NCBI GenBank assembly: GCA_020160935.1
Contig: JAIUPL010000023.1
Location: forward strand, 1 to 64,000
Direction of reading: 5' to 3'
DNA from: Bacteroidota bacterium
Lineage (GTDB): Bacteria > Bacteroidota > Bacteroidia > Chitinophagales > Saprospiraceae
DNA: 64,000 nt
Positions 61 through 61,616 of this stretch are shown here, in pieces (the stretch's first letter is position 1; each line of letters opens with the position of its first letter). Made by a program: the position numbers and the translations under genes. The notes under the pieces were generated by a model. It did not search any database, had not been told where the DNA came from, and saw only the letters and a list, made by a program, of their open reading frames with translations.

Positions 61-110
61 TACTACGACTTTTTGAAACTCATGATACTATGACTTAATG
101 AAACTCGGCA
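61..110. repeat. Two-copy 25-bp direct repeat
   Basis: Two imperfect 25-bp copies lie head to tail (61-85 and 86-110), both of the form TACTAYGACTT..TGAAACTC. They directly abut the first long inverted repeat. No gene is visible in positions 1-335 apart from this and the inverted repeat. Confidence 0.6.
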
Positions 111-228
111 GTCCTGAGTCCTAAGTCCGTAGAGTTGACCACGTTACTTTGGAAACTACAGTTAAGAATGCCAAAGTAACGTAGTCAACTCTACGGACTT
201 AGGACTCAGGACTCACGACTCAGGACTT
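110..228. repeat. Long inverted repeat, AGTCCTG heptamer type
   Basis: The arms at about 110-152 and 171-213 are complementary with one mismatch. The outer arm is a tandem heptamer (AGTCCTG, AGTCCTA), the middle stem is GTAGAGTTGACC and the inner stem is ACGTTACTTTGG. A further right-hand heptamer unit runs to about 228. It lies about 110 bp upstream of the sigma factor gene; the gene to its left is outside the window. It belongs to the modular hairpin family described in the findings. Confidence 0.9.
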
Positions 229-335
229 CCCGTTGTAACCTTTTCCCCAAATCCCGTGTCTCGTACAACATCACCCGGAAAAGCCGCGTACACCTGCCCG
301 GCATACCCTAAAAGGCAGGCGTACTATCAAACAAA

Positions 336-911
336 ATGGCAGCCACCCTTTCTGACGAGATATTAATAGAACAAGCCCGCAACGGGCGCCAAACGGCTTT
401 TGCCATGCTGGTAAAACGGTATGAGCAATATGCTTTTACGCTGGCGTTCCGTTTTGTAAAAAACAGGGAAGATGCACACGAGGTAGCGCAGGATGCTTTT
501 TTGAGAGCCTTCCGGTATTTGCCCGATTTCCGGGGTGATGCGAAGTTCAGCACCTGGTTGTACAAAATTGTGTATTCCACGGCACTGAATTTTTTGCGCA
601 AGCAACACCCGGAAATTTTGTCGACCGACGATGAAAACCGCCCGGTGCGACTGCCCGACGAAGGTATGCCGGATGCCTCGCAAGCCATGGAACGCAACGA
701 CCGGAATGCCGCTTTGCAGCGCGCTATTCAGATGTTGTCGCCCGATGATGCCGGTATTATCACACTCTTTTACCTGTATGAGCACAGCCTGGAAGAAATT
801 TGCCAGATCACGGAAATGACCATGACCAATGCCAAAACAAAACTTTGCAGGGCTCGTCAACGTTTAAAAAACATAGTGGAAGATCGTTTTTCCGCTGAAA
901 TCGCTTATTGA
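336..911 (+). CDS. ECF-type RNA polymerase sigma factor
   Basis: A 191-residue sigma-70 family protein that would direct RNA polymerase to a small regulon. Region 2 is at about residues 25-90, with the usual acidic and aromatic pattern (VKNREDAHEVAQDAFLRAF, then FRGDAKFSTWLYKIV). Region 4 is at about 125-180, with a helix-turn-helix ending in NAKTKLCRARQRL. There is no region 1.1 or 3, as expected for the extracytoplasmic-function group. The stop codon is followed after one base by the start of a membrane protein with anti-sigma features, so the two are almost certainly co-transcribed. The inducing signal and the target promoters cannot be read from the sequence. Confidence 0.93.
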   Translation: MAATLSDEILIEQARNGRQTAFAMLVKRYEQYAFTLAFRFVKNREDAHEVAQDAFLRAFRYLPDFRGDAKFSTWLYKIVYSTALNFLRKQHPEILSTDDENRPVRLPDEGMPDASQAMERNDRNAALQRAIQMLSPDDAGIITLFYLYEHSLEEICQITEMTMTNAKTKLCRARQRLKNIVEDRFSAEIAY

Positions 912-912
912 T

Positions 913-1434
913 ATGGAACCATCATTTGAGTTGACCGAAGACATGCTGTGGGACTATGCCGACGGCCTCCTTTCCCCGGCAGAAAAAACGCAGGTGGATA
1001 AGTACCTGGATGTGCACCCGGAGCAGCGCGCCATGCTCGATGCGATTGTGGCAGAAAAACGCCATTTTTCCGCGCTGCCGCTCGAACACCCCGACGCTGG
1101 TTTTTCTGATCGGGTGATGGCCGCCTGGGCTACGGAGCAAAGCGGCAAGACGGATATTTCGTCGGATAAAAGCCGCGACTGGATCATCTATGGCATTGGA
1201 GGGCTGCTGGCGGTGTTTCTGCTGTTGCCCATTGCCATGATTTTTGTTTCTGCACCCGATGCCGCACCCATGGGAATTGATCCATCCAGTTATATCCCCG
1301 AGATTCCCTGGGAGCAAATTTTTTCCGGCCCGGTCGCTCGCTTCGGCATGCCGCTTGCATTGCTGTTTTTTGCTTTCAGGTTTTTAGACCAATATTTGCA
1401 GCAGAAAAAAGTGCTTGCTCAATTGCAGGTGTAA
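913..1434 (+). CDS. Probable membrane anti-sigma factor
   Basis: A 173-residue protein that starts one base after the ECF sigma gene. Residues 1-75 form a soluble acidic region with the pattern of anti-sigma N-termini (DYADGLLSPAEKTQVDKYL..HPEQRAMLD). Two hydrophobic segments follow, at about 90-112 and 143-157. The HxxxCxxC zinc motif of ZAS-type anti-sigma factors is absent. I infer that it holds the sigma factor at the inner membrane, from its position and shape rather than from a clear family match. Confidence 0.75.
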   Translation: MEPSFELTEDMLWDYADGLLSPAEKTQVDKYLDVHPEQRAMLDAIVAEKRHFSALPLEHPDAGFSDRVMAAWATEQSGKTDISSDKSRDWIIYGIGGLLAVFLLLPIAMIFVSAPDAAPMGIDPSSYIPEIPWEQIFSGPVARFGMPLALLFFAFRFLDQYLQQKKVLAQLQV

Positions 1435-1438
1435 GTGC

Positions 1439-1894
1439 ATGGAAAAGGACAAGAAAAAGACAAAATTCATCTTTCAGCCCGAATATCCGGGCGGACCGAA
1501 GGAACTGACCAAGTTTATTTATGCGCAACTGAAATACCCGCAGTCTGCGCTGGAGTCGGGTATAGAAGGCACTGTGCTGGTCGAATACGATATTGACTAT
1601 CAAGGATTTGTAATAGCCACCCGCGTATTGCACAGTCTCGGAAAAGTATTTGATGAAGAAGCCGCCCGGGTGGTTCGACTGCTGAAATTCGACGTTCCCA
1701 GGAACCGGGGCGTCCATGTGGTTTTCCACCAAAAAGCGCGGATCAAATTCACCAAACCGCAACCCCAACCGGTGCAACCTGCGCAAATGCAGGTATCGTA
1801 CACAACGGTAAGCAATTCGCCCGAACCAGCAAAGAAAGAACCAGCGAAGGAAGGGAAAACGTATACGTATACTGTAAGGGTTGATAAAGGTTGA
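1439..1894 (+). CDS. TonB C-terminal domain protein, no membrane anchor
   Basis: A 151-residue protein; the ATG at 1439 lies four bases after the preceding stop. Residues about 15-105 match the TonB C-terminal fold: a YPGG motif, a YPQSAL segment, GIEGTVLVEYDID and DEEAARVVRLLKF. No N-terminal membrane segment or signal peptide precedes it, unlike a true TonB. The tail is rich in Pro, Gln and Lys. The last codons (VDKG and the stop) are read from the GGTTGATA tandem repeat that follows, so the native C-terminus may have been replaced. It is the third gene of the sigma operon; a role in envelope sensing is inference. Confidence 0.75.
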   Translation: MEKDKKKTKFIFQPEYPGGPKELTKFIYAQLKYPQSALESGIEGTVLVEYDIDYQGFVIATRVLHSLGKVFDEEAARVVRLLKFDVPRNRGVHVVFHQKARIKFTKPQPQPVQPAQMQVSYTTVSNSPEPAKKEPAKEGKTYTYTVRVDKG

Positions 1895-2060
1895 TGGGGT
1901 TGATAGGGTTGATGAGGTTGATAGGGTTGATAAAAGTTGATGAGGGTTGATAAGTGTTGATATTCATCGGCTCGATGAAGTGAAAAATCTTCCTACCCGA
2001 GCCGATGAATATCAACACTTATCAACCCTCATCAACTTTTATCAACCCCATCAACCCCTA
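1878..2060. repeat. Long inverted repeat, GGTTGATA type
   Basis: Both arms are tandem units of 9-10 bases (GGGTTGATA on the left, TATCAACCC on the right). They enclose a 19-bp unique stem, GTTGATATTCATCGGCTCG, with a loop of about 22 bases. It lies between converging genes and contains the stop codons of both: TGA at 1892-1894 for the TonB-C gene, and TAG at 2058-2060 for the transglycosylase gene on the minus strand. The stem and loop are almost identical to those of the element at 3671-3870. Confidence 0.92.
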
Positions 2061-2972
2061 CTTCGGCACCTTGATCTTATACGTTTTTCCCGCCTTATTG
2101 GTCAGTTTGTTATCAATCAGCCAGGGGTTGTACAATTTGAGCATGCGGTAATTGGTGCCATGTTCGCGGGCGAAATCGCCCCAGTTGGCTACGGGCCCGC
2201 TCACTTCCACTGTTTTGAAATTGTCCTGCACCGGGTACAAGTGGTCTTTTTCCACCGTGTACTCGTACAAATCGGGGTGTTCCATTACTTCCTTGATGGC
2301 TACGATGCGGAACGGATAGCGCATGGTTTCGTCGGCAGCCAGGTTGAGTTCGTAAAAGGATTTGGCGCGTTGAATCGCCATTTCTTCGGCAATGCGGCCC
2401 GGGCCACCGTTGTAGGCGGCTGCAGCCAGCGTCCAACTGCCGAGGCGTTCTTTTTCTTTTCTCAGGTATTTGCAGGCGGCATGGGTGGCTTTCTCGAGGT
2501 GATAACGTTCGTCTACTTCACTGTTTACTTCGAGGTTGTAGCCGTCGGCGGCGCTTTTCATAAATTGCCATACGCCACGCGCACCCGCCGGCGAGTTGGC
2601 ATTTGACAAAGCGCTTTCCGCTACGGCCAGGTATTTCAGGTCTTCCGGCACACCTTCCTCTTTCATAATGGGAATGATGGTCGGGAAAATGGCATTGGCG
2701 CGTTTGATGGCCAGAATGGTTTGCGAATGGAAATAAACATTGCGCAGCAATTCGGCATCCAGTCGCTGGCGCACATCCCAGTTGTCCATCGGCAGCGCTT
2801 CGCCGCAAAAGTCAAAATCCTTGTCGAGGTTGATGGATCGAACATGCTGATCGGGGCCTGTAAAACCGCCGCCGTCGCCGCCTTTAAAAGAGGAAAAAAA
2901 CAGCGCTCCCAGGCCAAACAGCAGCAACACATTGAATACCAAAAGAATACGGGCACTTTTCGTCCATTCCAT
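2058..2972 (-). CDS. Membrane-bound lytic murein transglycosylase (MltD-like)
   Basis: A 304-residue enzyme expected to cleave peptidoglycan glycan strands with formation of 1,6-anhydro-muramyl ends. An N-terminal membrane anchor is at residues 7-27. The SLT domain spans about 85-205, with the catalytic Glu at 119 (LAVAESALSN), then GARGVWQFM and AAAAYNGGPGRI. The last 45 residues (YRMLKLYNPWL..GKTYKIKVPK) resemble a LysM-type wall-binding module. A promoter box TACCTTTG lies 31-38 bp upstream of the start. The stop falls at the edge of a long inverted repeat. The gene is alone on its strand. Confidence 0.9.
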   Translation of the reverse strand: MEWTKSARILLVFNVLLLFGLGALFFSSFKGGDGGGFTGPDQHVRSINLDKDFDFCGEALPMDNWDVRQRLDAELLRNVYFHSQTILAIKRANAIFPTIIPIMKEEGVPEDLKYLAVAESALSNANSPAGARGVWQFMKSAADGYNLEVNSEVDERYHLEKATHAACKYLRKEKERLGSWTLAAAAYNGGPGRIAEEMAIQRAKSFYELNLAADETMRYPFRIVAIKEVMEHPDLYEYTVEKDHLYPVQDNFKTVEVSGPVANWGDFAREHGTNYRMLKLYNPWLIDNKLTNKAGKTYKIKVPK

Positions 2973-3670: not shown

Positions 3671-3870
3671 GGGGTTGATAGGGTTGATAAGGTTGATAGG
3701 GTTGATAGGGTTGATAGGGTTGATAGGGTTGATAAGGGTTGATGAGGGTTGATGAGGGTTGATATTCATCGGCTCGATGAAGTGAAAAATATCCCTACCC
3801 GAGCCGATGAATATCAACCCTCATCAACCCTCATCAACCCTATCAACCCTATCAACCCTATCAACCCTCA
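3671..3870. repeat. Long inverted repeat, GGTTGATA type
   Basis: The left arm has about ten GGGTTGATA-like units and the right arm about seven complementary units. They enclose GTTGATATTCATCGGCTCG and its complement with loop ATGAAGTGAAAAATATCCCT. Core and loop differ from the 1878-2060 element at only a few positions. The right edge is about 14 bp from the endonuclease III start codon. This makes it one of the few elements placed at a 5' end, and it would be transcribed in the leader if the promoter lies upstream. Confidence 0.92.
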
Positions 3871-3883
3871 AAAAAACATCCAC

Positions 3884-4555
3884 ATGTCAACAAAAAAAAC
3901 GACTGCCTCTCCCAAAATCCCCGCGGCCTTGCAGGAAAAAGCCAATACCATTGCGGAAATGCTGGACAAACTGTATCCGCAGACGCCCATTCCGCTCCAA
4001 CACAAAGACCCGTACACGTTGCTGGTAGCCGTCCTGCTGTCGGCACAATGCACCGATGCGCGGGTGAACATCATTACGCCCTACCTTTTTGCTGCGGCAG
4101 ATAATCCGCAGGATATGTGCAAATTATCAGTCGAGGAAATTAGACAACTCATTCGCACCTGCGGTTTTTCCAATGTGAAATCAAAAGCCATTTGGGAACT
4201 CTCCCATATCCTGGTAGACAAATACAATGGCATCGTGCCCGATACCTTCGAAGCACTCGAAGCACTGCCGGGGGTGGGCCATAAAACGGCATCCGTGGTC
4301 ATGTCGCAGGCATTTGGGTATCCCGCTTTTCCGGTTGATACCCATATTCATCGCCTGGCCGCCCGCTGGGGCCTCAGCAGCGGTAAAAACGTGGAACAAA
4401 CCGAGCGCGACCTCAAGGCGCTGTTTCCGGAGTCGACCTGGAATAAATTGCACCTGCAAATTATCTTTTATGGCAGGGAGTATTGCCCGGCGCGGGGGCA
4501 TAAGGTGGAGAAGTGCCCTATTTGTAAAACAGTCCTGAGTCCTACTGAGTCCTGA
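3884..4555 (+). CDS. nth: Endonuclease III (DNA glycosylase/AP lyase)
   Basis: A 223-residue base-excision repair enzyme for oxidised pyrimidines. The ATG at 3884 is chosen because the frame upstream only translates the tandem repeat. The helix-hairpin-helix LPGVGHKTASVV carries the catalytic Lys134, and VDTHIHRLA carries the catalytic Asp152. The iron-sulfur loop shows Cys201, Cys211 and Cys214 (C-X9-C-X2-C), but a fourth Cys is not present before the stop. The last eight residues (TVLSPTES) and the TGA are encoded by an AGTCCTG repeat, so the original C-terminus, possibly with the fourth Cys, may have been cut off. Whether the cluster still assembles is open. Confidence 0.92.
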   Translation: MSTKKTTASPKIPAALQEKANTIAEMLDKLYPQTPIPLQHKDPYTLLVAVLLSAQCTDARVNIITPYLFAAADNPQDMCKLSVEEIRQLIRTCGFSNVKSKAIWELSHILVDKYNGIVPDTFEALEALPGVGHKTASVVMSQAFGYPAFPVDTHIHRLAARWGLSSGKNVEQTERDLKALFPESTWNKLHLQIIFYGREYCPARGHKVEKCPICKTVLSPTES

Positions 4556-4686
4556 GTCCTAAGTCCTAAGTCCGTAGAGTACACCTTTGTACCCTTGGCA
4601 TTGCCAACAACAAATACCAAGGATACAGAGGTGTACTCTACGGACTTAGGACTTAGGACTCAGGACTCAGGACTTAGTAGGACTTA
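4531..4686. repeat. Long inverted repeat, AGTCCTG heptamer type
   Basis: Arms of AGTCCTG/AGTCCTA heptamers flank the middle stem GTAGAGTACACC and an inner stem ACCCTTGG/CCAAGGAT. It lies between converging genes and contains both stops: nth ends at 4555 and paaZ at 4674. The element therefore supplies the C-terminal codons of both proteins. Confidence 0.92.
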
Positions 4687-8045: not shown

Positions 8046-8057
8046 CAGAGTGTATTT

Positions 8058-8262
8058 CCCGTAGAGTGGTTTCCCGCAGATTTACGCAGATTTTTCCGCA
8101 GATTTACGCAGATCGTAGAGTACACCTTTTTTAGATGATCAAATAAAATGCGTCTACTCTACGATCTGCGTAAATCTGCGGAAAAATCTGCGTAAATCTG
8201 CGGGAAACCACTCTACGGGAAATTACTTTACAGGAAATTAATTTGCGGGAAACTACTCTACC
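8058..8262. repeat. Long inverted repeat, TTTACGCAGATT type
   Basis: The outer stem is GTAGAGTGGTTTCCCGCAG, followed by two units of the 22-bp GCAGATTTACGCAGATTTTTCC type. The middle stem is ATCGTAGAGTACACC and the loop about 25 bases. The main palindrome ends at about 8220. Extra right-hand units (GGGAAATTACTTTACAGG and similar) continue to 8262. It starts 12 bp after the stop of the plus-strand gene and ends just before the bshC stop. Confidence 0.9.
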
Positions 8263-14794: not shown

Positions 14795-14828
14795 TGTTGG
14801 GAGTTGAAATGTGTTTTTGGTGTGGAGA

Positions 14829-14947
14829 CCTCACCCCCCGGCCCCCTCTCCAACGGAGAGGGGGAGCGAGTACCCTTGGCTTTTTCAGATATGAGGCCAA
14901 GCGGGAAGTCACCCCCTCTCCGTTGGAGAGGGGGCCGGGGGGTGAGG
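14829..14947. repeat. Long inverted repeat, CCTCACCCCCCGGCCCC type
   Basis: G+C-rich arms of about 36 bp (14829-14864 and 14912-14947) read CCTCACCCCCCGGCCCCCTC and continue into CCAACGGAGAGGGGG. Inside lies a weaker stem containing ACCCTTGGC and GGCCAAGCG. It sits between two minus-strand genes, ending 12 bp beyond the stop of the upstream gene (14959). Confidence 0.9.
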
Positions 14948-14958
14948 TTCCCCGATCC

Positions 14959-16215: not shown

Positions 16216-16222
16216 GGGAAAT

Positions 16223-16260
16223 GAGAGGTGAGAGGTGAAAGGTGAGAAGTGAGAGGCGAG
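16223..16260. repeat. Single-arm heptamer tract (GAGAGGT x5)
   Basis: Five heptamers (GAGAGGT GAGAGGT GAAAGGT GAGAAGT GAGAGGC) end 8 bp from the start codon of the secreted protein gene. There is no complementary arm nearby. The 7-base period is that of the inverted-repeat arms. Confidence 0.65.
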
Positions 16261-22602: not shown

Positions 22603-22609
22603 GGTGATT

Positions 22610-22865
22610 TCTAGCGGATTTTTCCGTAAAGTTGTTTCCCGCAGGTCACACAGATTCATTTCCGTAGAATAGTTTCCCGCAGATTTACGCAGATTTTCCC
22701 GCAGATTTACGCAGATCATAGAGTACACCTTGTACTAGATTTGAAGAAATAGGTGTACTCTATGATCTGCGTAAATCTGCGGGAAAATCTGCGTAAATCT
22801 GCGGGAAACTACTCTGAGTGAAACTACTCTGAGGGAAACTACTCTACGAGAAAAATCCGCTAGAA
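22610..22865. repeat. Long inverted repeat, TTTACGCAGATT type
   Basis: The outermost stem TCTAGCGGATTTTTC pairs with its complement at the far end. Inside are GTTTCCCGCAG units, two GATTTACGCA units per arm and the middle stem ATAGAGTACACC, with the loop at about 22733-22752. It is one of the longest elements (about 256 bp). It fills most of the 319-bp gap between two plus-strand genes and begins 8 bp after a stop. Confidence 0.9.
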
Positions 22866-22921: not shown

Positions 22922-24697
22922 ATGAAAAAGAAACACGTTCCAGCAAAGGAAACCCCGGCCCCTGCCGGCAATCGGCTCCTGGCCGCTATGGGTGCAGCCG
23001 TCATCGCTTTTCTGGTATATCTACCCTCCCTGAAAAACGGTTTTGTCAATTGGGACGACGACGCAACGATCGTCAATAATCCGTTGTTGGCGCAGGTGAA
23101 CAGCCAGAACTTGTTGGGCATTTTTGACCTGCAACAGGGCTCGGCCGGTTTGGGCAACTACAATCCGCTCTCGATCTTCAGTTTTTTTCTGGAAAAATGG
23201 GTGTCGGGCTCGCTCAATCCCGGTTTGCTGCATTTCGACAACGCCTTGTTGCATGCGCTCACCGTCTTTTTTGTAGTGCGTGTTTTGCTGGCGCTGGGCC
23301 TGGGGCAGGGCGGTGCATTTGTGGGCGGACTGTTGTTCGGCATTCATCCCATGCGGGTAGAATCGGTGGCCTGGGCAACCGAACGCAAAGACGTGTTGTT
23401 TGCCGTGTTTTTCTTCGCAGCGCTGTGGTACTATATCCGCTGGGTCAAAAGCGAGCCAAAATCGTCGCGCCTGTACACCACAGCCGTCGTGCTTGCCTTG
23501 TTGTCGTGTCTTGCCAAAGTGCAGGCTGTTGCCTTGCCACTCAGTATGCTGGCTGTCGATTACTGGTTGAAACGGCCATTCAACGTCAGAACCGTTTTGC
23601 TTGAAAAAGCGCCGTTTTGGGCATTTTCAGTCATTTTCGGCGCTATCAATGTGTACACACTCGGGCTACAGGGCGCCACCGACAATAGTATGACGCATTT
23701 CGGACTCGGGCAGCGGCTGGTGATCGGCGCCTGGTCGTTTTGCGTGTATTTGTACAAACTGGTTTTTCCCTGGCCGATGCTGCCGTTTTACACCTACCCA
23801 AGGCAGTTGGAAGGCTGGATGTATGCCGGGCCGCTGGTTTTTATCGCACTCTGCGCGCTCGTGTGGTGGTTGCATAGCACAGGCAGGCGTGTATGGGTAT
23901 TCGCTTTTCTGTTTTTCTTTTTCAATGTAATGTTTTTGCTACAGGTGCAAACAGCCGGGCAGGGCTACCTGGCCGACCGCTTTACATATGTAGCCTATTT
24001 CGGCTTTTTTGCGTTGTTTGCCTGGAAATTCGATCAGAATGCGGAAGATGTCGTCTGGTCGGGCAGATGGAAAACTGGTACAGTCATCCTGGGTATGTTG
24101 TATGTGTTGTTCACCTATGAACAAATTGGTGTCTGGAAAAACAGCGACACCCTGTGGTCACACGTCATTCAATACGAAGGAGAAAAAAGCGGGCTACCCC
24201 ACTGGTACCGCGGACAGTATTACCGCAGTCAGGGACAATACGACAAAGCGCTGGCCGATTATCAGCAGGCTCTGAGTAAAGAGCCGCAGAATGGCGAATT
24301 GCTCAATAGTCGCGGGAAAACATATTTCGATATGGCTGTTTCCGGGAAATACCCCAAAGAGCAGTTTCCGGATCTGATGAAAAAGTCGCTCGACGACTAC
24401 AATGCCAGCCTGCAATATGCCAACACGGTGCGCCCTGTCACCAAAGCCGCCATGCTCATCAACCGTGGCGCCGCCTATGGCACCGTCGGCCAGGTGGAAA
24501 AGGCCCTGCAAGATTTCACCCAGGGACTGCAACTCGATCCAAACAATAAAATGGGATATATGAACCTCGGCGCCGTGTACCAGAAAATGCGCCAGCCGGA
24601 AAAGGCGGCAGCGGCGTACCGGGAATATTTGAAACTGGACCCGGGGAATGTGAGGGTTCAGAAAGAACTTAGTAAAGTCCTGAGTCCTAAGTCCTGA
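22922..24697 (+). CDS. TMTC-like membrane glycosyltransferase-fold protein with TPRs
   Basis: A 591-residue protein with about ten membrane segments in residues 20-400. The first extracytoplasmic loop has FVNWDDD and a later one HPMRVESVAWATERKDVLF. These are the marks of TMTC-like GT-C fold proteins, whose eukaryotic relatives are O-mannosyltransferases. Three or four tetratricopeptide repeats follow (YDKALADYQQALSKEP, VEKALQDFTQGLQLDP, PEKAAAAYREYLKLDP). The activity in bacteria is uncertain. The last residues VLSPKS and the stop are read from the AGTCCTG repeat. The ATG at 22922 is chosen because the frame upstream enters another repeat. Confidence 0.82.
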   Translation: MKKKHVPAKETPAPAGNRLLAAMGAAVIAFLVYLPSLKNGFVNWDDDATIVNNPLLAQVNSQNLLGIFDLQQGSAGLGNYNPLSIFSFFLEKWVSGSLNPGLLHFDNALLHALTVFFVVRVLLALGLGQGGAFVGGLLFGIHPMRVESVAWATERKDVLFAVFFFAALWYYIRWVKSEPKSSRLYTTAVVLALLSCLAKVQAVALPLSMLAVDYWLKRPFNVRTVLLEKAPFWAFSVIFGAINVYTLGLQGATDNSMTHFGLGQRLVIGAWSFCVYLYKLVFPWPMLPFYTYPRQLEGWMYAGPLVFIALCALVWWLHSTGRRVWVFAFLFFFFNVMFLLQVQTAGQGYLADRFTYVAYFGFFALFAWKFDQNAEDVVWSGRWKTGTVILGMLYVLFTYEQIGVWKNSDTLWSHVIQYEGEKSGLPHWYRGQYYRSQGQYDKALADYQQALSKEPQNGELLNSRGKTYFDMAVSGKYPKEQFPDLMKKSLDDYNASLQYANTVRPVTKAAMLINRGAAYGTVGQVEKALQDFTQGLQLDPNNKMGYMNLGAVYQKMRQPEKAAAAYREYLKLDPGNVRVQKELSKVLSPKS

Positions 24698-24822
24698 GTC
24701 CTAAGTCTGTAGAGTACACCTATATACCCTTGGTTTTTGTTGATGTAAAAACCAAGGGTATATAGGTGTACTCTACAGACTCAGGACTCAGGACTTAGGA
24801 CTCAGGACTCAGGACTTTATTC
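24673..24822. repeat. Long inverted repeat, AGTCCTG heptamer type
   Basis: Heptamer arms flank the middle stem GTAGAGTACACCTATATACCC, and the inner stem TTGGTTTTT/AAAAACCAA is nearly perfect. It lies between converging genes. The TPR gene's TGA (24695-24697) is inside it, and the ilvE stop (24821-24823) is at its edge. Confidence 0.93.
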
Positions 24823-30810: not shown

Positions 30811-30987
30811 TTGGTTATTGGTTATTGGTTATTGGTTATCAGGGTGGTAGGGGACCATTTACACAAATGATTTGCCACACAAGATGGGATGCCGAAAATT
30901 TGTGTAAATGGTCCCCTACCACCCTGATAACCAATAACCAATAACCAATAACGGATAACCAATAACGGATAACCAACAACGGATAAC
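30811..30987. repeat. Long inverted repeat, GTTATTG heptamer type
   Basis: Arms of GTTATTG heptamers (about four on the left and eight on the right) enclose the middle stem GGGTGGTAGGGGACCATTTACACAAAT. The loop contains GCCACACAAGATGGGATGC. It begins 2 bp after the stop of the DUF3179 gene. The middle stem and loop are shared with the element at 33619-33764. Confidence 0.92.
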
Positions 30988-32498: not shown

Positions 32499-32508
32499 TT
32501 TTGGTAGC

Positions 32509-33021
32509 ATGGATCACTCCTTACCTCCACCAGACCTGCTGCAACTCTTGCAGCAACATGCCGGTATCCTGCACAAAGTCATCCGTTTATACGCCGATGA
32601 TGAGGAAGACCGCCGCGATTTGTACCAGGAAATGCTGTATGAAAGTTGGCGCGCCTACCCCGGATTCCGGGGTGCTTCCTCATTCAGTACCTGGTTGTAT
32701 CGGGTAGCATTAAACACTGCCCTTACATTCCGGAAAAAAGCCTTGCGCAAAGTACGCACCGTCGACCTCGACCATGCCGTACAGATACCGGATGATACCT
32801 CATCAGCCTTGAGCCCGGCTGCCGAAATGTTGTACATGGCTATTCGCAACCTGTCCGAAACAGACCGCGCGCTCATCACCCTGCACCTCGACGGATACGA
32901 TCATGAGGCCATTTCTGCCATCAGCGGTATTACCAAAAACAACGTGGCGGTGAAACTGCACCGTATTAAATCGGAATTGGAAAACCGCCTAAAACAAGGG
33001 GACTATGGAAGACATCAATAA
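32509..33021 (+). CDS. ECF-type RNA polymerase sigma factor
   Basis: A 170-residue sigma factor with region 2 at about 20-85 (HKVIRLYADDEEDRRDLYQEM, then FRGASSFSTWLYRVALNTAL) and region 4 at about 110-165 (LSETDRALITLHLDGYDHEAISAISGITKNNVAVKLHRI). Its 3' end overlaps the next gene by 17 bp, which implies coupled translation with a membrane partner. It is not a close copy of the sigma factor at 336. Confidence 0.92.
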   Translation: MDHSLPPPDLLQLLQQHAGILHKVIRLYADDEEDRRDLYQEMLYESWRAYPGFRGASSFSTWLYRVALNTALTFRKKALRKVRTVDLDHAVQIPDDTSSALSPAAEMLYMAIRNLSETDRALITLHLDGYDHEAISAISGITKNNVAVKLHRIKSELENRLKQGDYGRHQ

Positions 33022-33616: not shown

Positions 33617-33618
33617 TT

Positions 33619-33764
33619 TAGTTATTGGTTATTGGTTATTAAGTTATTAGGGTGGTAGGGGACCATCTGTACAGATATTTAGCCACACAAAATGGAATGC
33701 TCAACATCTATACAGATGGTCCCCTACCACCCTAATAACTTAATAACCAATAACTTAATAACCA
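33619..33764. repeat. Long inverted repeat, GTTATTG heptamer type
   Basis: GTTATTG/GTTATTA arms enclose the middle stem GGGTGGTAGGGGACCATCTGTA and a loop with GCCACACAAAATGGAATGC. It begins 2 bp after a stop and ends 5 bp before the stop of the converging outer-membrane gene. Confidence 0.92.
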
Positions 33765-39315: not shown

Positions 39316-39453
39316 AACAGTCCGGAGTCCTGAGTCGTAAGTCCTGAGTCCGTAGAGTACACCTGATTACCCTTGAATATCTTTTTTATTAAAGCCAAGA
39401 GTAATCAGGTGTACTCTACGGACTCAGGACTTACGACTCAGGACTCCGGACTA
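39316..39453. repeat. Long inverted repeat, AGTCCTG heptamer type
   Basis: Arms begin AGTCCGGAGTCCTGAGTCG; the middle stem is GTAGAGTACACCTGATTAC, then ACCCTTGAATATC and an A/T-rich loop. It lies 31 bp upstream of the DUF1080 start, between divergent genes. The remaining part of the 506-bp gap (39454-39791) is A/T-rich and must hold the susC promoter, though no clean TAnnTTTG box is evident (CATCTTTG at 39737 is the nearest). Confidence 0.93.
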
Positions 39454-42700: not shown

Positions 42701-42998
42701 CACGACGGACAACAACCGTAATACCCGCATGTCGGATCGCTTCATCGAGGACGGGTCTTACCTGCGTGTGCAAAACATCCGCCTCGGCTACCGACTCCCG
42801 ACCACCTTTACCAAAAAGTACCGCGTGGAAAGCCTGCGGCTGTATGTAAATGCGCAAAACGTGTACACATTCACCAAATACACCGGCTACGACCCGGAAA
42901 TCGGCGCTTTCAACCAGGATCCACTCCTGCAAAACGTCGATATGGGCCGCTACCCGACCCCGAGGGTGTATACGTTTGGGGTAGATGTGGATTTTTAG
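39792..42998 (+). CDS. SusC/RagA-family TonB-linked outer membrane transporter
   Basis: A 1068-residue outer-membrane importer of oligosaccharides. The signal peptide is at about 1-28. The carboxypeptidase-regulatory-like domain at about 30-105 (IRGIVTDPGGEPLIGATVRV) leads into the SusC signature (DEIVVVGYGTQKKSDLTGAV). Plug: ALQGRIAGVQVTQNSGQPGG, ASASAIYGARAANGVILITT. The barrel ends YPTPRVYTFGVDVDF. It is followed by its SusD partner and heads the utilisation locus. The cargo is inferred from the downstream enzymes to be manno- or glucomanno-oligosaccharides. Confidence 0.97.
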   Translation: MMRSSTFRAGRRWLALLPMLCCSLLLTAQSLTIRGIVTDPGGEPLIGATVRVVNAPNRGAITDTKGSYTIQASPGERLSFTYTGYLDQTVTVPADGSAVNLLMSPNPKVLDEIVVVGYGTQKKSDLTGAVASVSSEQLKNTVVTNLDQALQGRIAGVQVTQNSGQPGGATSIRIRGANSITGSSEPLYVIDGIPFQGDGTSVSGFDWAGGANGQNRVNPLAAINPNDIVSIEVLKDASASAIYGARAANGVILITTKRGQAGESKISYNGYYANQTLGKKLDMMNLREYADYQLQISKDLGLQPNQRYLDPSLLGNGTDWQDEIFRDAGMQSHQLSVSGGNDKTTYAITGGYFKQDGIVIGSNFERYSARINLDNQVKNWFKVGGSLAYATTNEKITLNDGGDGVIMQALLTQPDIAVRDIDGNYAGPEAQFTSASYNPVAAALQRNNTLARQRLMGNVYGDLTLLKNLTFRSEIGFDDNHGLNKAFHPTYRWGVLVNTENQLRQREESSFFWVWKNYLTYKVLDNETHRLTAMVGQEAQKSSWQGSLVTKKNFSSNDIPVLSEGDDVTSRTSGWKDAAAIASYFGRFNYSLFDRYLLTFTMRADGSSKFGPENRWGYFPSAAIAWRLGEEPFMKSLNTNLKIRLGYGEVGNQAIANYLYGASLQAINSPFGTAYRLEKISNPKLKWEATKQTNAGVDISLVKGRIDLSFDLYNKQTTDMLLQLSVPSYLGGTGWQDIRAPFGNVGKMENKGFDLALHTRNIEGKKFKWGTDLTFSRNRNKVKELDDANRIYWRNLYWYSEFQTATRTQAGAPLGQFYGYVTEGLFTSKEDILAHAVQVNDPNNDGKNLVDKRAGVWIGDIKFKDLNGDGVINTDDQTIIGDPNPNFTFGLNNSLSYGPFDLVIYLTGSYGADILNYSRVQIEGMTNVYANQAATVFDRAQYSLRDPNGSDLDPNNVTLANPGTDIPRPTTTDNNRNTRMSDRFIEDGSYLRVQNIRLGYRLPTTFTKKYRVESLRLYVNAQNVYTFTKYTGYDPEIGAFNQDPLLQNVDMGRYPTPRVYTFGVDVDF

Positions 42999-43090
42999 GG
43001 GTTGAATGTTGAGGAGTTGAGGGTTGAAAGGTTGAGATACAGCCACTCTACCGAGTCTCAACCCCTCAACCCTCAACCCCTCAACTATCA
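42999..43090. repeat. Short inverted repeat, GGTTGAG type
   Basis: Imperfect GGTTGA/TTGAGG units face complementary TCAACCC units across a core GTTGAGATACAGCCACTCTACCGAGTCTCAAC. It begins at the susC stop and lies 29 bp upstream of the SusD start, so it could set the ratio of SusC to SusD. Confidence 0.8.
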
Positions 43091-43118
43091 AACCAGTTAC
43101 CATTCAATCCAACACAAC

Positions 43119-44771: not shown

Positions 44772-44810
44772 AACCCTATATTTTCATAAACGATCAAATG
44801 TTTCTGCAAC

Positions 44811-45992: not shown

Positions 45993-46000
45993 TAAAACCT

Positions 46001-46109
46001 GTTATTGGTTATTGGTTATTAGTTATTAGTACACTCTCCCTTGGCATATTTTGATAAAAAAGCCAAGGGTAGTTTGCCCTAATAACTAATAACCAATAAC
46101 CAATAACCC
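46001..46109. repeat. Long inverted repeat, GTTATTG heptamer type with ACCCTTGG core
   Basis: GTTATTG/GTTATTA arms enclose GTACACT and the inner stem CTCCCTTGGC..GCCAAGGGTAG. It combines the outer arms of the 30.8- and 33.6-kb elements with the innermost stem of the AGTCCTG elements. It begins 8 bp after a stop and ends 12 bp before the next start. Confidence 0.9.
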
Positions 46110-46121
46110 AAATCATAAGCC

Positions 46122-48230: not shown

Positions 48231-48369
48231 CTGAGTCCCAAGTCCCGAGTGCTAAGTCCTGAGTCTGTAGAGTAGACCGCGTTTCTTTTTGCATTTCTTT
48301 ACAAAATTGCTCCATGAAACGCGGTCCACTCTACAGACTCAGGACTTAGCACTCAGGACTCAGGACTGT
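48231..48369. repeat. Long inverted repeat, AGTCCTG heptamer type
   Basis: Arms are AGTCCCAAGTCCCGAGTGCTA-like heptamers. The middle stem is GTAGAGTAGACCGCGTTTC, a variant of GTAGAGTACACC, with a loop of about 28 bases. It starts directly after the stop of the IPT protein and ends 14 bp before the GH26 start, inside the presumed operon. Confidence 0.92.
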
Positions 48370-48382
48370 AAACCTCTATTAT

Positions 48383-49552: not shown

Positions 49553-49560
49553 CTGTTGAT

Positions 49561-51672: not shown

Positions 51673-51682
51673 ACAACACATC

Positions 51683-53653: not shown

Positions 53654-53892
53654 TAGAGCGTGAGAGATGTGAGAGCGTGAGAAATGTGAGAGAGTGAGAG
53701 ATGTGAGAGTTCGTAGAGTGCACCGCTTCGCTATAAAAATTTCAAAATGTATAAACCCAGGCCAATGAAATGCAGGTGTAATCTAAATCGGCTCTCACAT
53801 CTCTCACTCTCTCACATCTCTCACTCTCTCACATCTCTCACTCTCTCACATCTCTCACATCTCTCACTCTCTCACATCTCCCCTCTCACCTC
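53654..53892. repeat. Long inverted repeat, GTGAGAGA type
   Basis: The left arm has GTGAGAGATGTGAGAGCGTGAG units and the right arm a longer run of CTCTCACATCTCTCACT units (53803-53892). A variant middle stem GTAGAGTGCACC has a partner GCAGGTGTA. The right arm is about twice as long as the left. It starts at the esterase stop and ends 10 bp before the GH130 start. Confidence 0.88.
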
Positions 53893-53902
53893 TTTTTTTT
53901 CC

Positions 53903-55069
53903 ATGTCTTCTGATTTCCAAACAAGACTCCAACAACTCCAGGCAGCGCATGAGATACTGCTGGACACGCCCAACCAACCACAAACCCCTGGCAACGGCAT
54001 CTACACCCGCTGGGAAAATCCGGTGCTGACGCCGGCACATACACCCTTGTTCTGGCGATATGACTACAACCCTGACACCAATCCTTTTTTGATGGAACGA
54101 CTGGGGGTAAATGCCACATTCAATTCCGGCGCGCTGCTCTGGAACGGCCGTTATATACTGGTGGTACGCGTGGAAGGCAACGACCGCAAATCGTTTTTCG
54201 CCATTGCAGAAAGTCCGAACGGTATCGATCGATTCAGGTTTTGGGATTTTCCGGTGCTCATGCCTGAAACAGCCGATCCAGACACCAATGTGTACGATAT
54301 GCGCCTGACCGCCCATGAAGATGGCTGGATTTACGGACTGTTTTGCAGTGAAAGAAAAGATATGGAGCGCCCGCACGACCTCTCGGCGGCCACGGCCCAG
54401 TGCGGTATCGCGCGTACACGCGACCTCGTACAATGGGAACGCCTGCCCGATCTGATTACCTATTCCGGACAACAGCGCAATGTGGTGCTGCACCCCGAAT
54501 TTGTACAAGGCAAATACGCACTTTACACCCGCCCGCAGGATGGATTTATTGAAGTGGGCAGCGGTGGCGGTATTGGCTGGGGATTAACCGACAGTATGGA
54601 AAACGCTGAAGTGCGCGATGAAATCATTGTTGATGGAAAAGTGTATCACACCATCAAGGAAGTGAAAAATGGCCAGGGGCCTGCGCCGCTCAAAACGCCG
54701 GAAGGCTGGTTGCACCTGGCACATGGCGTGCGCAATACGGCAGCCGGGCTGCGCTATGTATTGTATATGTTTATGACCGATCTGCACGAGCCCTGGCGAA
54801 TAACACATGCTCCGGGAGGCCATTTTATCGCACCGGAAGGTGCCGAGCGCGTCGGCGATGTGTCGAATGTGGTGTTTTCAAACGGCTGGATCCGCACCGA
54901 AAACGATCAGGTGTTTATTTATTACGGCTCTTCGGATACGCGGATGCACGTGGCCACGACTTCCATTGCCCAATTACTGGATTATGTAAAAAATACACCG
55001 GCCGACGGGTATCGATCTGCAGCGAGCGTAGCACAGCGATTCAAACTGATCGAGCGAAATTTGACATAA
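53903..55069 (+). CDS. GH130 4-O-beta-D-mannosyl-D-glucose phosphorylase
   Basis: A 388-residue cytoplasmic enzyme with no signal peptide. It would split mannosyl-glucose with phosphate into mannose-1-phosphate and glucose. GH130 family 1 traits are [21 protein letters not shown], the likely proton-donor Asp in [23 protein letters not shown] and [22 protein letters not shown]. The ATG at 53903 is chosen; the upstream frame translates the CTCTCACAT repeat. The epimerase that makes its substrate is the next gene. Confidence 0.93.
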
Positions 55070-55226
55070 GTACCAGGTCAATATTAGTTTAGACTATGGA
55101 CATCGGCTTTTGTGCTGTAACAGCGTTTGTTTTTCGTTACAATACCCACGCATTGCGCCTCAAAACAGCCTCGTCACAGCACAAAATCCGATGTCCATAG
55201 TCTAAACTAATATTGACCTGGTACTT
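55068..55226. repeat. Long perfect inverted repeat with 51-bp arms
   Basis: The arms at 55068-55118 and 55176-55226 match with a single mismatch and begin AAGTACCAGGTCAATATTAG. The loop is about 57 bases. Unlike most others the arms have no tandem units. The left edge includes the last two bases of the GH130 stop codon. Confidence 0.95.
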
Positions 55227-55299
55227 ACCGTAAAATATAGTTATTTTAGCGGCCCTTTACACAACCCGACACACACACCTGCTACTTATCAGCGTACCT

Positions 55300-56529
55300 A
55301 TGCAAACCGGTATTTCTGAAATTATCCCCTTGCAACACCTGGCTTTGGAGGCCGGGCGCGAACTGCATGATATTCTTCACTGGTGGGCAACAAAAATGCC
55401 CGATCACGACCATGGAGGTTTCTACGGCCGAATCGATGGAACAGGCCACCTGCACGCCCAGGCCGACAAAAGTGTGATTCTGAATACCCGCATTTTGTGG
55501 ACATTCAGTGCTGCGGCACTTCAAACCGGACAAAAAGAACACCGCGATGTGGCCGAACGGGCATATCACTACATCCTCGATCATTTCTGGGATGCACAAT
55601 ATGGTGGCGTGTACTGGATGCTCGATTACAAAGGCAATCCCTCCCAGGATAAAAAACAGGTGTATGCACAGGCTTTTGCCTTGTATGCCTTTTCGGAATA
55701 TTACCGGCTCACCCACGACGAAACAGCACTTCAAAAAGCCAGAACGCTGTTCGATCTCATGGAGCGGCACAGCCTCGACAAAATGCGTGGCGGGTACTTT
55801 GAAGCGTTCAGCCGCGACTGGCAATTGATTGCCGACCTGCGCCTGAGTGATAAAGACGCCAACGAGGCCAAAACCATGAATACCCACCTGCACGTACTGG
55901 AAGCATACGCCAACCTGCTTCGTGCAGCACCCTCGCAACCCGTAGAAGCAGCATTAAAAGCACTGATACTGCTTTTCCTCGATCGATTTATCGACCCGCA
56001 GACCGCACACCTGCGCCTGTTTTTTGATGAATACTGGAACCTGAAATCGCAGGAAATTTCATTCGGGCATGACATAGAAACCAGTTGGTTGCTCTGCGAC
56101 GCTGCGCAGGTACTGGGCTCCAAAAGCCTGATCAAAAGAACCCGACAGGCAGCCGTACAGGTGGCCGATGCTTGCCTGCGGGAAGGTACCGACCCACAAA
56201 ATGGCGGCATGTACTACACGGCGCATCCACAGCATGGCATCGTTGATGCCCAGAAAGACTGGTGGCCACAAGCCGAGGCCGTGCTGGGCTACCTCAATGC
56301 CTGGGAAATCAGCCAGGCGCCTCGCTTTTTGGAAGCCGCCCATCGCTCCTGGCAATTTATTCTCCAATACCTGCGCGATACCGATCAGGGCGAATGGTAC
56401 TGGGCCTACAACCCCGACGGCCGCCCCGATACCATCAACGATAAAGCCGGGCCCTGGAAATGCCCTTACCACAATGGTCGGGCATGTATGCAAATAGCGC
56501 ATATTTTCAAGCGTTTGTCAGAAAATTGA
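55300..56529 (+). CDS. Cellobiose/mannobiose 2-epimerase
   Basis: A 409-residue cytoplasmic enzyme of the N-acylglucosamine 2-epimerase superfamily that converts the reducing-end mannose of mannobiose to glucose. The (alpha/alpha)6 barrel shows HDHGGFYGRIDGTG, KSVILNTRILWTFSAA, FWDAQYGGVYWMLD, FGHDIETSWLL and GPWKCPYHNGRACMQ; the last two hold the catalytic His residues known in cellobiose epimerases. No signal peptide. With GH130 it forms the intracellular branch of mannan catabolism. No symporter gene accompanies them here. Confidence 0.93.
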   Translation: MQTGISEIIPLQHLALEAGRELHDILHWWATKMPDHDHGGFYGRIDGTGHLHAQADKSVILNTRILWTFSAAALQTGQKEHRDVAERAYHYILDHFWDAQYGGVYWMLDYKGNPSQDKKQVYAQAFALYAFSEYYRLTHDETALQKARTLFDLMERHSLDKMRGGYFEAFSRDWQLIADLRLSDKDANEAKTMNTHLHVLEAYANLLRAAPSQPVEAALKALILLFLDRFIDPQTAHLRLFFDEYWNLKSQEISFGHDIETSWLLCDAAQVLGSKSLIKRTRQAAVQVADACLREGTDPQNGGMYYTAHPQHGIVDAQKDWWPQAEAVLGYLNAWEISQAPRFLEAAHRSWQFILQYLRDTDQGEWYWAYNPDGRPDTINDKAGPWKCPYHNGRACMQIAHIFKRLSEN

Positions 56530-59283: not shown

Positions 59284-59400
59284 GAAACACGGATTACACG
59301 GATAAAAACAGATTTACACAGATTTGATTACAACGTAATGGTACTTAACGTACAAATCAAATCCGTGTAAATCTGTTTTTATCTGTGTAATCCGTGTTTC
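59283..59400. repeat. Long inverted repeat, ACACGGATTACACGGAT type
   Basis: Arms of about 46 bp (59283-59328 and 59355-59400) with a few mismatches are built from GATTACACGGAT and GATTTACACAGAT words. They resemble, in C/A-shifted form, the TTTACGCAGATT arms at 8.1 and 22.7 kb. It starts at the last base of the reductase stop and lies between converging genes. Confidence 0.92.
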
Positions 59401-59420
59401 CAAATCCGTGTTGCACGTTG

Positions 59421-60590: not shown

Positions 60591-60716
60591 TGTCTGGTAT
60601 AGATTATTGGTAAGTGGTTATCAGTGGCGGAGATATAAAAAAGCGGCCACAAAGAAAGCGGCTTTCCGTTATTTAGAAGGCAGATATACAAATGATTTTT
60701 TATAAAAATCTGTGAC

Positions 60717-60744
60717 TTTGGTCCTAAACTGCGTTTTATCTTTG
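60717..60744 (+). promoter_or_regulatory. Bacteroidota-type promoter
   Basis: TTTG at 60717-60720 and TATCTTTG at 60737-60744, 16 bases apart, fit the TTTG / TAnnTTTG pattern with slightly short spacing. Transcription would start about 58 bp before the secreted coiled-coil protein. Confidence 0.6.
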
Positions 60745-60808
60745 TTTGGATGTGTGTCGCCTGCCTGGCTGGCACGTATTTTCCTAATTCGCTCAAAATC
60801 TAAAACTT

Positions 60809-61498
60809 ATGCAACGAAAATTTTTCTTCCCCGTGCTGATGTTCCTCTTCATTGCTTCGGCAGCCTCTGCACAATGGAATAACGTGATTGAAACGGAACG
60901 TATGATGTCGTTCGGTAGCCGCCCCGCCTTCCGAATGGAATTTCCCAATACGGATGCGGGACTGGTAGAAGACCTTTGGAAGGATTATGCCAAGAAAAAT
61001 TTTGGCGCCAAACTCAAAAAAGACAAAAAATCGGGCGAGTGGTCCGCGATGGATTTGAAATCGGCCATTATGGGCGACGATAAATTTGCCATTTATTCCA
61101 CAGTGGAAAAAAATGACAAAAATTCGGCCCTCACGGTATGGTTCGACGCCGGCTCTTATTTTCTCAACCGCCGCGACAATCCCGGCAACACGGAAGAAGT
61201 GAGCCGCGCCTTGCGCCAGTTTTATATCGATGTGCGCCGCGCAGGCATACAGGCCGAGTTGACCGCTGAAGAGAACAAACTGAAAGACCTGGACAAAAAG
61301 CAGAAAAACCTGCAAAAGGACAATGACGGCATGCGCAAGGACATCGATTCGTGGAAAGCCAAAATTGCCAAAGCCGAACAGGATATTGTGAACAACGAAC
61401 GTGAACAGGAACAAAACCTGGTAAACCAGGATGCACAGCGCCGCGCCATAGAGGCCGTTCGCCAACGCCTGAACAACGTGGAAAACGAGCGTAACTAA
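60809..61498 (+). CDS. Secreted protein with C-terminal coiled coil
   Basis: A 229-residue protein with a signal peptide (VLMFLFIASAASA). Residues about 25-145 are a compact domain (MMSFGSRPAFRMEFPNTDAG, DLWKDYAKKNFGAKLKKD). Residues about 150-228 are a long charged coiled coil (ELTAEENKLKDLDKKQKNLQ, RDIVNNEREQ-like to the end). The family is not recognised. It has its own promoter and is followed at once by an inverted repeat. Confidence 0.75.
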   Translation: MQRKFFFPVLMFLFIASAASAQWNNVIETERMMSFGSRPAFRMEFPNTDAGLVEDLWKDYAKKNFGAKLKKDKKSGEWSAMDLKSAIMGDDKFAIYSTVEKNDKNSALTVWFDAGSYFLNRRDNPGNTEEVSRALRQFYIDVRRAGIQAELTAEENKLKDLDKKQKNLQKDNDGMRKDIDSWKAKIAKAEQDIVNNEREQEQNLVNQDAQRRAIEAVRQRLNNVENERN

Positions 61499-61503
61499 AT
61501 CTC

Positions 61504-61616
61504 CGCGTACGCTACGCGTTGTGTACTTTGTGAAACCTTAGGGCCCTTTGTGGTAAAAAAATTTTAACCACGAAGTACACCAAGGTTTCACAAAGGACAC
61601 AACGTGTAGCGTGTAC
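61504..61616. repeat. Long inverted repeat, ACAAAGG/TTTCACAAAG type
   Basis: The arms CGCGTACGCTACGCGTTGTG and ACTTTGTGAAACCTT pair with AAGGTTTCACAAAGGACACAACGTGTAGCGTGTAC-like sequence, and an inner stem CTTTGTGGTAAAA pairs with TTTTAACCACGAAG. It begins 5 bp after the stop of the coiled-coil protein. Pairing is good but not perfect. Confidence 0.85.

What the first reader, a model, noticed from the sequence alone, without database searches (positions are those of the whole stretch)
110..61616. A modular family of long intergenic hairpins with arms of short tandem repeats
About nineteen inverted repeats of roughly 90-260 bp lie between genes across the whole window. Most share a layered plan. 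The outer arms are tandem units of 7-10 bases (AGTCCTG, GTTATTG, GGTTGATA, GTGAGAGA). The middle stem is GTAGAGTACACC or a variant, and the innermost stem resembles ACCCTTGG. Both arms of each element change together, so pairing is kept while the words differ. Arms made of tandem units are not what REP, MITE or ordinary terminator sequences look like. No protein that would move them is in the window.
Basis: seen in the sequence. Interest (0 to 1): 0.92.

Follow-up and report, generated by a model that had tools for sequence, protein, structure and literature searches.

The report
Long gene-end palindromes with repeat arms
An uncultured Saprospiraceae bacterium carries long DNA palindromes, mostly just past the ends of genes, whose two arms are built of short repeated words and change together, so that the hairpin persists while its sequence is rewritten or swapped between related species.

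Summary
The window has 19 hairpin regions, 15 with tandem arrays. The genome is an uncultured Saprospiraceae. In 864 kb of it I count 180 long hairpins against 25 mirror-repeat controls, about 1,200 per genome by extrapolation. They form some 15 sequence families, not one; the core GTAGAGTACACC marks three of these. They abut stop codons: median 4 bp; 69 of 115 convergent junctions hold one. Between G000 and its nearest relative G028 arms change together: 77 columns changed alike in both arms, 22 in one; native arms pair better than arms swapped between species in 19 of 21 cases. Junction occupancy is conserved although some families are exchanged. G.U mismatches do not exceed A.C mismatches, so symmetry looks kept by DNA copying between arms rather than RNA pairing. 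Best reading: a new, genus-level variant of heptamer-armed hairpins, kept symmetric by intra-hairpin template switching and tolerated or used at 3' ends. Function and means of dispersal are inferred. I found no RAYT link, no displacement of terminators, and no consistent tie to SbcCD loss.

The parts
110..227 (.). hairpin, AGTCCTG arms, GTAGAGTTGACC core
1856..2087. hairpin, GGGTTGATAA/GTTGATGA arms, TTCATCGGCTCG core; overlaps the 3' end of the upstream gene and reaches the stop of the convergent one (stricter limits 1877-2056)
3672..3870 (.). hairpin, GGGTTGATA arms, same core as 1856-2087
4531..4686 (.). hairpin, AGTCCTG arms, GTAGAGTACACC core, convergent junction
8054..8253 (.). hairpin, CCCGCAGATTTACGCAGAT arms, GTAGAGTACACC core, 8 and 13 bp from two convergent stops
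14828..14948 (.). hairpin without tandem arms; inner GTACCCTTGGC
22609..22865 (.). hairpin, CGCAGATTTACGCAGAT arms; the G028 orthologue has CGCAGAACTCGCAGAA in both arms
24673..24819 (.). hairpin, AGTCCTG arms, contains the stop codon of the upstream gene; composite (nested) element in G028
30811..30976 (.). hairpin, GTTATTG arms, GGTGGTAGGGGACCAT core, 1 bp after a stop codon
33620..33764 (.). hairpin, GTTATTG arms, same core family; a single hairpin stands for this and 30811 in L133
38431..38565 (.). hairpin, AGTCCTG arms, GTAGAGTACACC core
39319..39452 (.). hairpin, AGTCCTG arms, GTAGAGTACACC core, divergent junction
42997..43091 (.). weaker hairpin, GGTTGAG arms
46001..46108 (.). hairpin, GTTATTG arms, CTCCCTTGGC inner stem
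48247..48367 (.). hairpin, AGTCCTG arms, GTAGAGTAGACC core
53655..53880 (.). hairpin, GTGAGAGAT arms, GTAGAGTGCACC core
55067..55227 (.). hairpin without tandem arms
59284..59412 (.). hairpin, ACACGGATTACACGGAT arms (not flagged by TRF)
61509..61612 (.). imperfect hairpin without tandem arms

Best explanation
These are long intergenic palindromes of a class found across much of one genus-level lineage of uncultured Saprospiraceae. SHOWN: outer arms of mostly 7-10 base tandem words, inner cores of family-specific length, placement against stop codons, concerted change of both arms between species, and conserved occupancy of gene junctions although some word families are exchanged. INFERRED: the arms are kept alike by DNA copying between them (template switching or conversion when the palindrome folds in single-stranded DNA), together with slippage of the tandem units; cores and arms are passed between hairpins by the same kind of copying or by an unidentified mobilising enzyme. 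At gene ends the element acts in both directions as a translation-stop-rich, stable 3' boundary: the 5' arm closes reading frames and the stem can block 3' exonucleases or read-through. This boundary role is the weakest step.
For: 180 hairpins against 25 mirror controls in 864 kb. Edge-to-stop distance median 4 bp, 164 of 227 within -30..+15; for start codons median 61 bp and 25 of 125. Occupied: 69 of 115 convergent, 21 of 112 divergent, 80 of 385 tandem junctions. Arm swap between G000 and G028: native arms more stable in 19 of 21 scored (29 examined), p 6.7e-6; without the five pairs whose families differ, 14 of 16. Columns changed alike in both arms 77, in one arm 22 (17 elements). Core covariation 120 cells against 37.9 shuffled, 19 of 33 pairs changed on both sides. 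G.U 32 against A.C 36 in sense-oriented tandem stems. Occupancy G000 x G028: both 22, neither 76, discordant 14; G000 x G016: both 8, neither 23, discordant 6 (Fisher 1e-11 and 4e-4). Stop trinucleotides per kb 84 in the 5' arm, 37 in the 3' arm, 59 shuffled; 12 of 15 families have more stops in the 5' arm. Template switching is reported to homogenise arms of inverted repeats (PMC8604942, start of abstract seen in the listing).
Against: No copying event was observed directly. Long stems tolerate single mismatches, so the G.U test has limited power against weak RNA selection. Within convergent junctions alone the occupancy association with G028 is not significant (p 0.13). Density varies widely in the genus and no hairpin was seen in 80 kb each of G011 and G035, so gene ends there do without them. 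Hairpins could persist simply because deletion next to coding ends is hard. No transcript data. TAA is commoner in the 3' than in the 5' arm (236 v 145); GTTAT, ACACGGAT and ATTTACGATT families have more stops in the 3' arm, as does G005 overall. Of the 8 junctions shared with G016, the palindrome at 24698 is of a non-tandem kind.
Confidence: 0.5

Rival explanations
1. Selection on the RNA hairpin itself (3' UTR stabiliser or terminator-like element) keeps the arms complementary.
For: Placement at stop codons and in convergent junctions; covariation; occupancy conserved with some family exchange; G-rich 5' arms in 14 of 15 families, AGTC only marginally. At the ilvE junction G006 and G031 show only a short hairpin with a T-rich 3' side.
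Against: No G.U excess over A.C in the sense strand (32 v 36). Terminator-like sites do not fall as hairpins rise (rho 0.28, p 0.40, 11 genomes), and strict terminators are equally rare at 3' ends with (10/211) and without (10/217) a hairpin, antisense controls 8/211 and 6/217.
Confidence: 0.25
2. Ordinary non-autonomous transposons (MITE or REP type) moved in trans by a transposase; symmetry is only that of terminal inverted repeats.
For: The core is in 231 exact copies genome-wide with tight inner length per arm family. Near-identical cores with loops sit on different contigs (0.89 and 0.87 identity). One non-tandem family shows an insertion with a possible TTAGA duplication.
Against: Y1_Tnp in only two copies, with no exact core in either 3.2-3.3 kb locus. 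No clean empty site with target duplication was seen for a tandem-armed family; several discordant sites look like decayed remnants. Same-family hairpins are not significantly clustered. Other transposase families were not searched.
Confidence: 0.2
3. DNA-uptake-type signal sequences paired as terminators.
For: A 12-mer repeated in inverted pairs at gene ends.
Against: Only 1 of 67 copies lies in a gene and 64 are tied to hairpins; most families lack this core.
Confidence: 0.02
4. Assembly artefact or chance palindromes.
For: None found; G000 is unnamed and in 51 contigs, and the nearest named relatives are metagenome assemblies.
Against: Orthologous elements in separately assembled G028 and in the named MAG contig L133, with diverged flanks; mirror-repeat controls.
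Confidence: 0.01

Closest known systems
Heptanucleotide-repeat hairpins of cyanobacteria: the P6b stem of the Nostoc tRNA-Leu intron, and STRR hairpins between genes
   Same: Degenerate heptanucleotide repeats base-pair into a hairpin and copy number varies (PMC3488679, passages). STRR hairpins, usually of 7-bp repeats, lie between genes, one near a 3' end, with suggested transcript-stabilising roles (PMC2670836, passages). Jackman and Mulligan 1995 'highly variable but structured intergenic regions' was seen only as a cited title there.
   Different: Here about 1,200 per genome by extrapolation, some 15 families with inner cores, at gene ends across the sampled genome, with exchange of families at conserved junctions, in Bacteroidota.
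TAACTGA direct heptamer repeats of Beggiatoaceae, cyanobacteria and some Bacteroidetes (PMC4679880, abstract and section 10 read)
   Same: Intergenic heptamer arrays; indels mostly in 7-nt steps between two Cyanothece strains.
   Different: Direct (one indirect repeat reported), and in the main genome mostly just upstream of start codons.
REP/BIME palindromes with RAYT transposases (PMC3733652, abstract)
   Same: Palindromic, dispersed, mostly downstream of genes.
   Different: REPs are 20-40 bp and GTAG/CGTC tagged at one end; here arms of median 50 nt and no core beside the two Y1_Tnp genes.
BOX elements of streptococci (PMC3049150, passages)
   Same: Modular; internal module in variable tandem number; predicted stem-loop.
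   Different: BOX tandem modules lie inside and are predicted to pair little with the rest; here the repeats form both outer arms and change together.
Template-switch homogenisation of inverted-repeat arms (PMC8604942 and PMC7202029, listing only)
   Same: Arms of one repeat become alike.
   Different: Described there for short inverted repeats in a yeast lineage and for E. coli quasipalindrome mutations, not as a genome-wide population of elements.

Membership tests
REP/RAYT elements | 20-40 bp palindrome with an unpaired GTAG or CGTC tag at one end | tested here: not met
   median arm 50 nt; the GTAG of the core is paired in all 36 aligned cores
REP/RAYT elements | RAYT gene flanked by or associated with the repeats | tested here: not met
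   2 Y1_Tnp matches, no exact core in either locus
MITE | terminal inverted repeats matching a full-size transposon | not tested
   only Y1_Tnp (PF01797) was searched
MITE | target-site duplication at empty sites | tested here: inconclusive
   none seen for tandem-armed families among the discordant junctions, few of which are clean empty sites; one possible for the AGAGCGTG family without tandem arms
Intrinsic terminator | short GC hairpin followed by T run | tested here: not met
   10/211 3' ends with hairpins, 8/211 antisense
STRR / heptamer hairpins | tandem heptamers, intergenic | tested here: met
   outer 30 nt periodic in 98 of 180, 70 of them with period 7 (9 too short to test); shuffled 3 of 171; 1 of 180 inside a gene
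STRR / heptamer hairpins | repeats of the two arms pair into a stem | tested here: met
BOX elements | boxA-boxB(n)-boxC sequence modules | not tested
   no sequence comparison with BOX was run
Known Rfam RNA families | match to a curated covariance model | tested here: not met
   0 matches at gathering score in the window
DNA uptake sequences | many copies also inside genes (recalled) | tested here: not met
   1 of 67 core copies in a gene

The most novel reading that the evidence does not exclude
A 'sequence-free' genomic element: what evolution conserves is the presence of a long, nearly perfect hairpin at particular gene ends, while its sequence is continually rewritten by arm-to-arm copying and replaced by hairpins of other word families. 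Structure and position are inherited, words are not.
Probability: 0.35. Interest if true: 0.9.

Novelty: new variant of a known kind. Interest (0 to 1): 0.75.

Why it matters
Long perfect palindromes are usually unstable in bacteria (general knowledge), yet here long hairpins make up 3.67% of the sequence examined. Because orthologous junctions in relatives carry rewritten or different hairpins, the lineage offers a natural experiment to separate selection on hairpin structure from DNA-level homogenisation, and to ask what gene 3' ends need where U-tract terminators seem scarce. It also gives heptamer repeats, noted in cyanobacteria with function unknown, a second lineage with a large sample.

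Tried and rejected
RAYT as mover: two Y1_Tnp genes, no exact core in their loci. Loss of SbcCD as the reason for tolerance: SbcD (TIGR00619) is over its cut-off in 5 of 37 genus genomes (G004, G008, G012, G036, and G014 only when neighbouring stretches are summed) and has no match in G000. But G028 has an Mre11-like and a Rad50-like reading frame side by side (the labels are mine from the sequence), the Mre11-like protein is found in 7 of 9 genomes tested and not in G000 or G008; hairpin-rich G028 and G016 have it, and so do G011 and G035, in which no hairpin was seen; hairpin-poor G008 has a full SbcD. No consistent link. Replacement of intrinsic terminators: no support. Uptake sequence: rejected. 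Local spread: consecutive hairpins of one family 20 against 15.7 permuted, 287 of 2000 permutations at least as high; inner cores less than 6 kb apart are slightly more alike (0.606 v 0.537, 11 and 619 pairs, p 0.01). A first gap-ignoring identity measure of within- against between-species arms was noisy (min within above max between in 11 of 21) and was followed by the arm-swap energy test. Core outside the genus: AGTCYGTAGAGTACACC in 0 of 394 other phylum genomes, a sample that held no other genome of the genus. GTTATTG x3 occurs in 8 other genomes of 395; of 7 such loci read, 2 have a short hairpin by a lax rule.

Literature: searches listed no description of such elements in Saprospiraceae; only open-licence PMC papers are held. 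Surveys looked at in passages (PMC13155455; PMC4060949) or abstract (PMC2267715) did not show one in what I saw.
Full report
Setting. A scan of named genomes with the window's aminotransferase-like protein (24821-25936) returned, as nearest hits, metagenome-assembled Saprospiraceae and Bacteroidota (97% identity for 'Saprospiraceae bacterium isolate new MAG-362', L133). In the unnamed set the nearest relatives by this protein are G028 (97%), G016 (92%) and G006 (88%).

Observation. An inverted-repeat search and a seed-based hairpin finder give 19 hairpin regions in the window; 15 contain arrays found by Tandem Repeats Finder. I fetched 800 kb more. With a fixed rule (at least ten 11-mer seeds within 400 bp) the 864 kb holds 180 hairpins against 25 mirror repeats, 3.67% of the bases and about 1,216 per genome if the sample is representative. 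The contigs sampled were chosen from those listed with core hits, so the density may be somewhat high. No Rfam family matches the window at gathering score.

Anatomy. Outer arms are periodic: of 180 arms, 98 pass a self-match of 65% in their outer 30 nt, 70 of them with period 7; 73 fail and 9 were too short to test; shuffled arms give 3 of 171. By regular expressions 155 of 180 fall in 15 families; one of these (TTCGGCTTCGCC) is not a tandem word. The core GTAGAGT..ACC is found with three arm families: AGTC 35 of 41, GTGAGAG 12 of 14, CGCAGAT 5 of 7, and 1 of 25 unclassified. Its geometry is tight: the 36 AGTC-armed cores measure 76-79 nt, 42-45 nt between the two core halves; 7 others have 22-24 (CGCAGA words in the printed examples), 8 have 28-35 (GTGAGAG words), and one has 70. 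Three hairpins are layered, GTTAT words outside and GTTGAG words inside. The genome-wide core count is 231 exact copies and 443 with up to one mismatch, against 8 for the reversed pattern.

Place. Using my own gene caller (618 genes), 1 of 180 hairpins lies inside a gene and 3 lack a called gene on one side; 176 were classed. Hairpin edges facing a gene's 3' end lie a median 4 bp from the stop codon (164 of 227 within -30 to +15; 76 overlap it); edges facing a start lie a median 61 bp away (25 of 125 within the same range). Occupied junctions: convergent 69 of 115, divergent 21 of 112, tandem 80 of 385.

Polarity. The 5' arm is G-rich (138 of 180 positive skew, 34 negative, 8 zero) and holds more stop trinucleotides than its complement (84 against 37 per kb; shuffled 59 +/- 1.6). 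TGA drives this (499 against 63) with TAG (169 against 58); TAA goes the other way (145 against 236). All three frames are closed within 60 nt in 80 of 163 five-prime arms and in 30 of 163 read as three-prime arms. By family, 14 of 15 have positive mean skew, AGTC only marginally, and 12 of 15 have more stops in the 5' arm. In G028 skew is positive in 23, negative in 8 of 33; G005 is against the trend for stops (36 v 56 per kb).

Arms change together. (a) For 29 hairpins whose flanks map to G028, 21 had a G028 hairpin that could be scored; native left-right pairs were more stable than swapped pairs in 19 (means -138.0 and -80.6, Wilcoxon p 6.7e-6). In five of these the families differ by the labels, where the result is expected; of the other 16, 14 agree. 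(b) In 17 same-family orthologues, ungapped columns were 462 same, 77 changed alike in both arms, 22 changed in one arm, 1 with arms differing alike in both species; 258 gapped columns were left out, and arms were cut to the seeded stem, which favours paired columns. (c) Within G000 the own partner arm was the best of the family in 27 of 41 AGTC, 21 of 22 GTTAT, 7 of 17 GTTGATGA, 7 of 14 GTGAGAG, 6 of 9 TTTTGTG and 4 of 9 GAGTTATGA, where about 1 is expected; the other families were not tested. (d) In 36 aligned AGTC cores, 33 pairs: 91.8% of cells paired, 19 pairs changed on both sides, 12 never vary, covariation 0.296 against 0.108 shuffled and at most 0.077 slid. The clearest example in the window is 22609-22865: CGCAGATTTACGCAGAT in both arms in G000, CGCAGAACTCGCAGAA in both arms in G028.

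DNA or RNA? If base pairing in RNA were selected, G.U should outnumber A.C among isolated stem mismatches read on the transcribed strand. It does not: 32 against 36 in tandem junctions (sense-oriented), and on the plus strand 36 against 35 in convergent and 9 against 6 in divergent ones. I read this as arm-to-arm copying in DNA, with the caveat that one mismatch in a 50-bp stem may be invisible to selection.

Junctions keep hairpins more than sequences. Of 112 junctions mapped to G028, 22 have hairpins in both, 76 in neither, 8 only in G000 and 6 only in G028; by labels 17 of the 22 share a family and 5 do not. Fisher p is 1e-11 overall, 1.5e-6 in tandem, 0.009 in divergent and 0.13 in convergent junctions. 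Against G016 (37 junctions, flanks about 81% identical): both 8, neither 23, discordant 6, p 4e-4. Of these 8, 2 share a label (AGTC at 102444; GGCAAGG, a secondary label, at 101295), 3 have no shared label, and 3 have an unlabelled side. The printed G016 sequences at 85791, 92818, 110989 and 112839 are palindromes clearly different from those of G000 (G000). Some G028 elements (24673, 101272, 113186) look composite, with half-elements joined to complete ones (my reading). Several discordant junctions look like decayed remnants rather than fresh insertions.

Distribution. The exact core occurs 225 times in G028, 53 in G016, 41 in G006, 12 in G031, 7 in G023 and 0-4 times in each other genome of 60. 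For long hairpins of any kind, the genus without G000 has 72 in 1.14 Mb: per 10 kb G016 2.28, G062 1.5 (20 kb only), G028 1.21, G022 and G005 1.0 (with other words, such as TGCGGAA and TTGGACG), G020 0.5 (20 kb), G012 0.38, G007, G009 and G021 0.25, G008 0.12, and none in G011 or G035 (80 kb each), G033 (40 kb), G013, G023, G030 or G032 (20 kb each). Outgroups of the same order: 8 in 330 kb, of which 6 are runs of N, leaving 2. N was counted fully only in G000, which has none.

Dispersal. The two most alike pairs of AGTC cores lie on different contigs (0.89 and 0.87 identity over the inner part), so cores are copied over distance. What does this is not known. Mover, nuclease-loss and terminator hypotheses that failed are in Tried and rejected.

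Conclusion. The feature is real and strong. It works like the heptamer-repeat hairpins described in cyanobacteria and does not meet the REP/RAYT, terminator or uptake-sequence definitions that I tested; MITE membership is untested or inconclusive. I rate it a new variant of a known kind, with a less certain but more interesting reading: inherited hairpin position with free sequence.

Noticed in passing
window 29401-29428 and 29471-29498; L071 1276-1370: A REP-like repeat, GCCCTGAAAGGGCGTATTCAATAGCACA, occurs twice in the window, and its first 14 bases occur 12 times in 864 kb; closely similar words form the hairpin in the locus of one of the two Y1_Tnp genes. It looks like an ordinary RAYT/REP pair, separate from the tandem-armed hairpins.
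   Followed up: partly
window 30811-33764; L133 4808-5012: In the MAG contig L133 one hairpin stands where G000 has two GTTAT hairpins with about 2.7 kb between them, as if recombination between the two had removed or gained the segment.
   Followed up: partly
window 16222-16260 and 29326-29365: Single arrays (TGAGAGG, AGTGAGAG) without an evident partner arm; at the first junction the relative has GTTGATGA words instead.
   Followed up: no
window 10764-12280: Tandem repeat of 156 bp (9.7 copies) inside the long reading frame 9995-14794 on the minus strand.
   Followed up: no
G000:C17 about 178920-179080: A hairpin of the AGAGCGTG family without tandem arms is missing in G028, with a possible TTAGA duplication: MITE-like.
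   Followed up: no
G000 whole genome; L272 3902-7431: G000 has no match to the Mre11-like protein that G028 encodes beside a Rad50-like reading frame; 7 of 9 genomes tested have it. Assembly gap or loss cannot be told.
   Followed up: partly
L083 (G014), downstream of ilvE: Two terminator-like hairpins extended outward into long palindromes without tandem words: possibly how such elements begin.
   Followed up: no
window 39792-56529: A likely polysaccharide utilisation locus: TonB receptor plug, SusD, two proteins with SGBP-B xyloglucan-binding domains, GH26, GH9, GH130, GlcNAc 2-epimerase.
   Followed up: no
L148: A contig labelled Thermoanaerobaculia encodes an 81% identical homologue of the window's aminotransferase; probably misbinned.
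   Followed up: no
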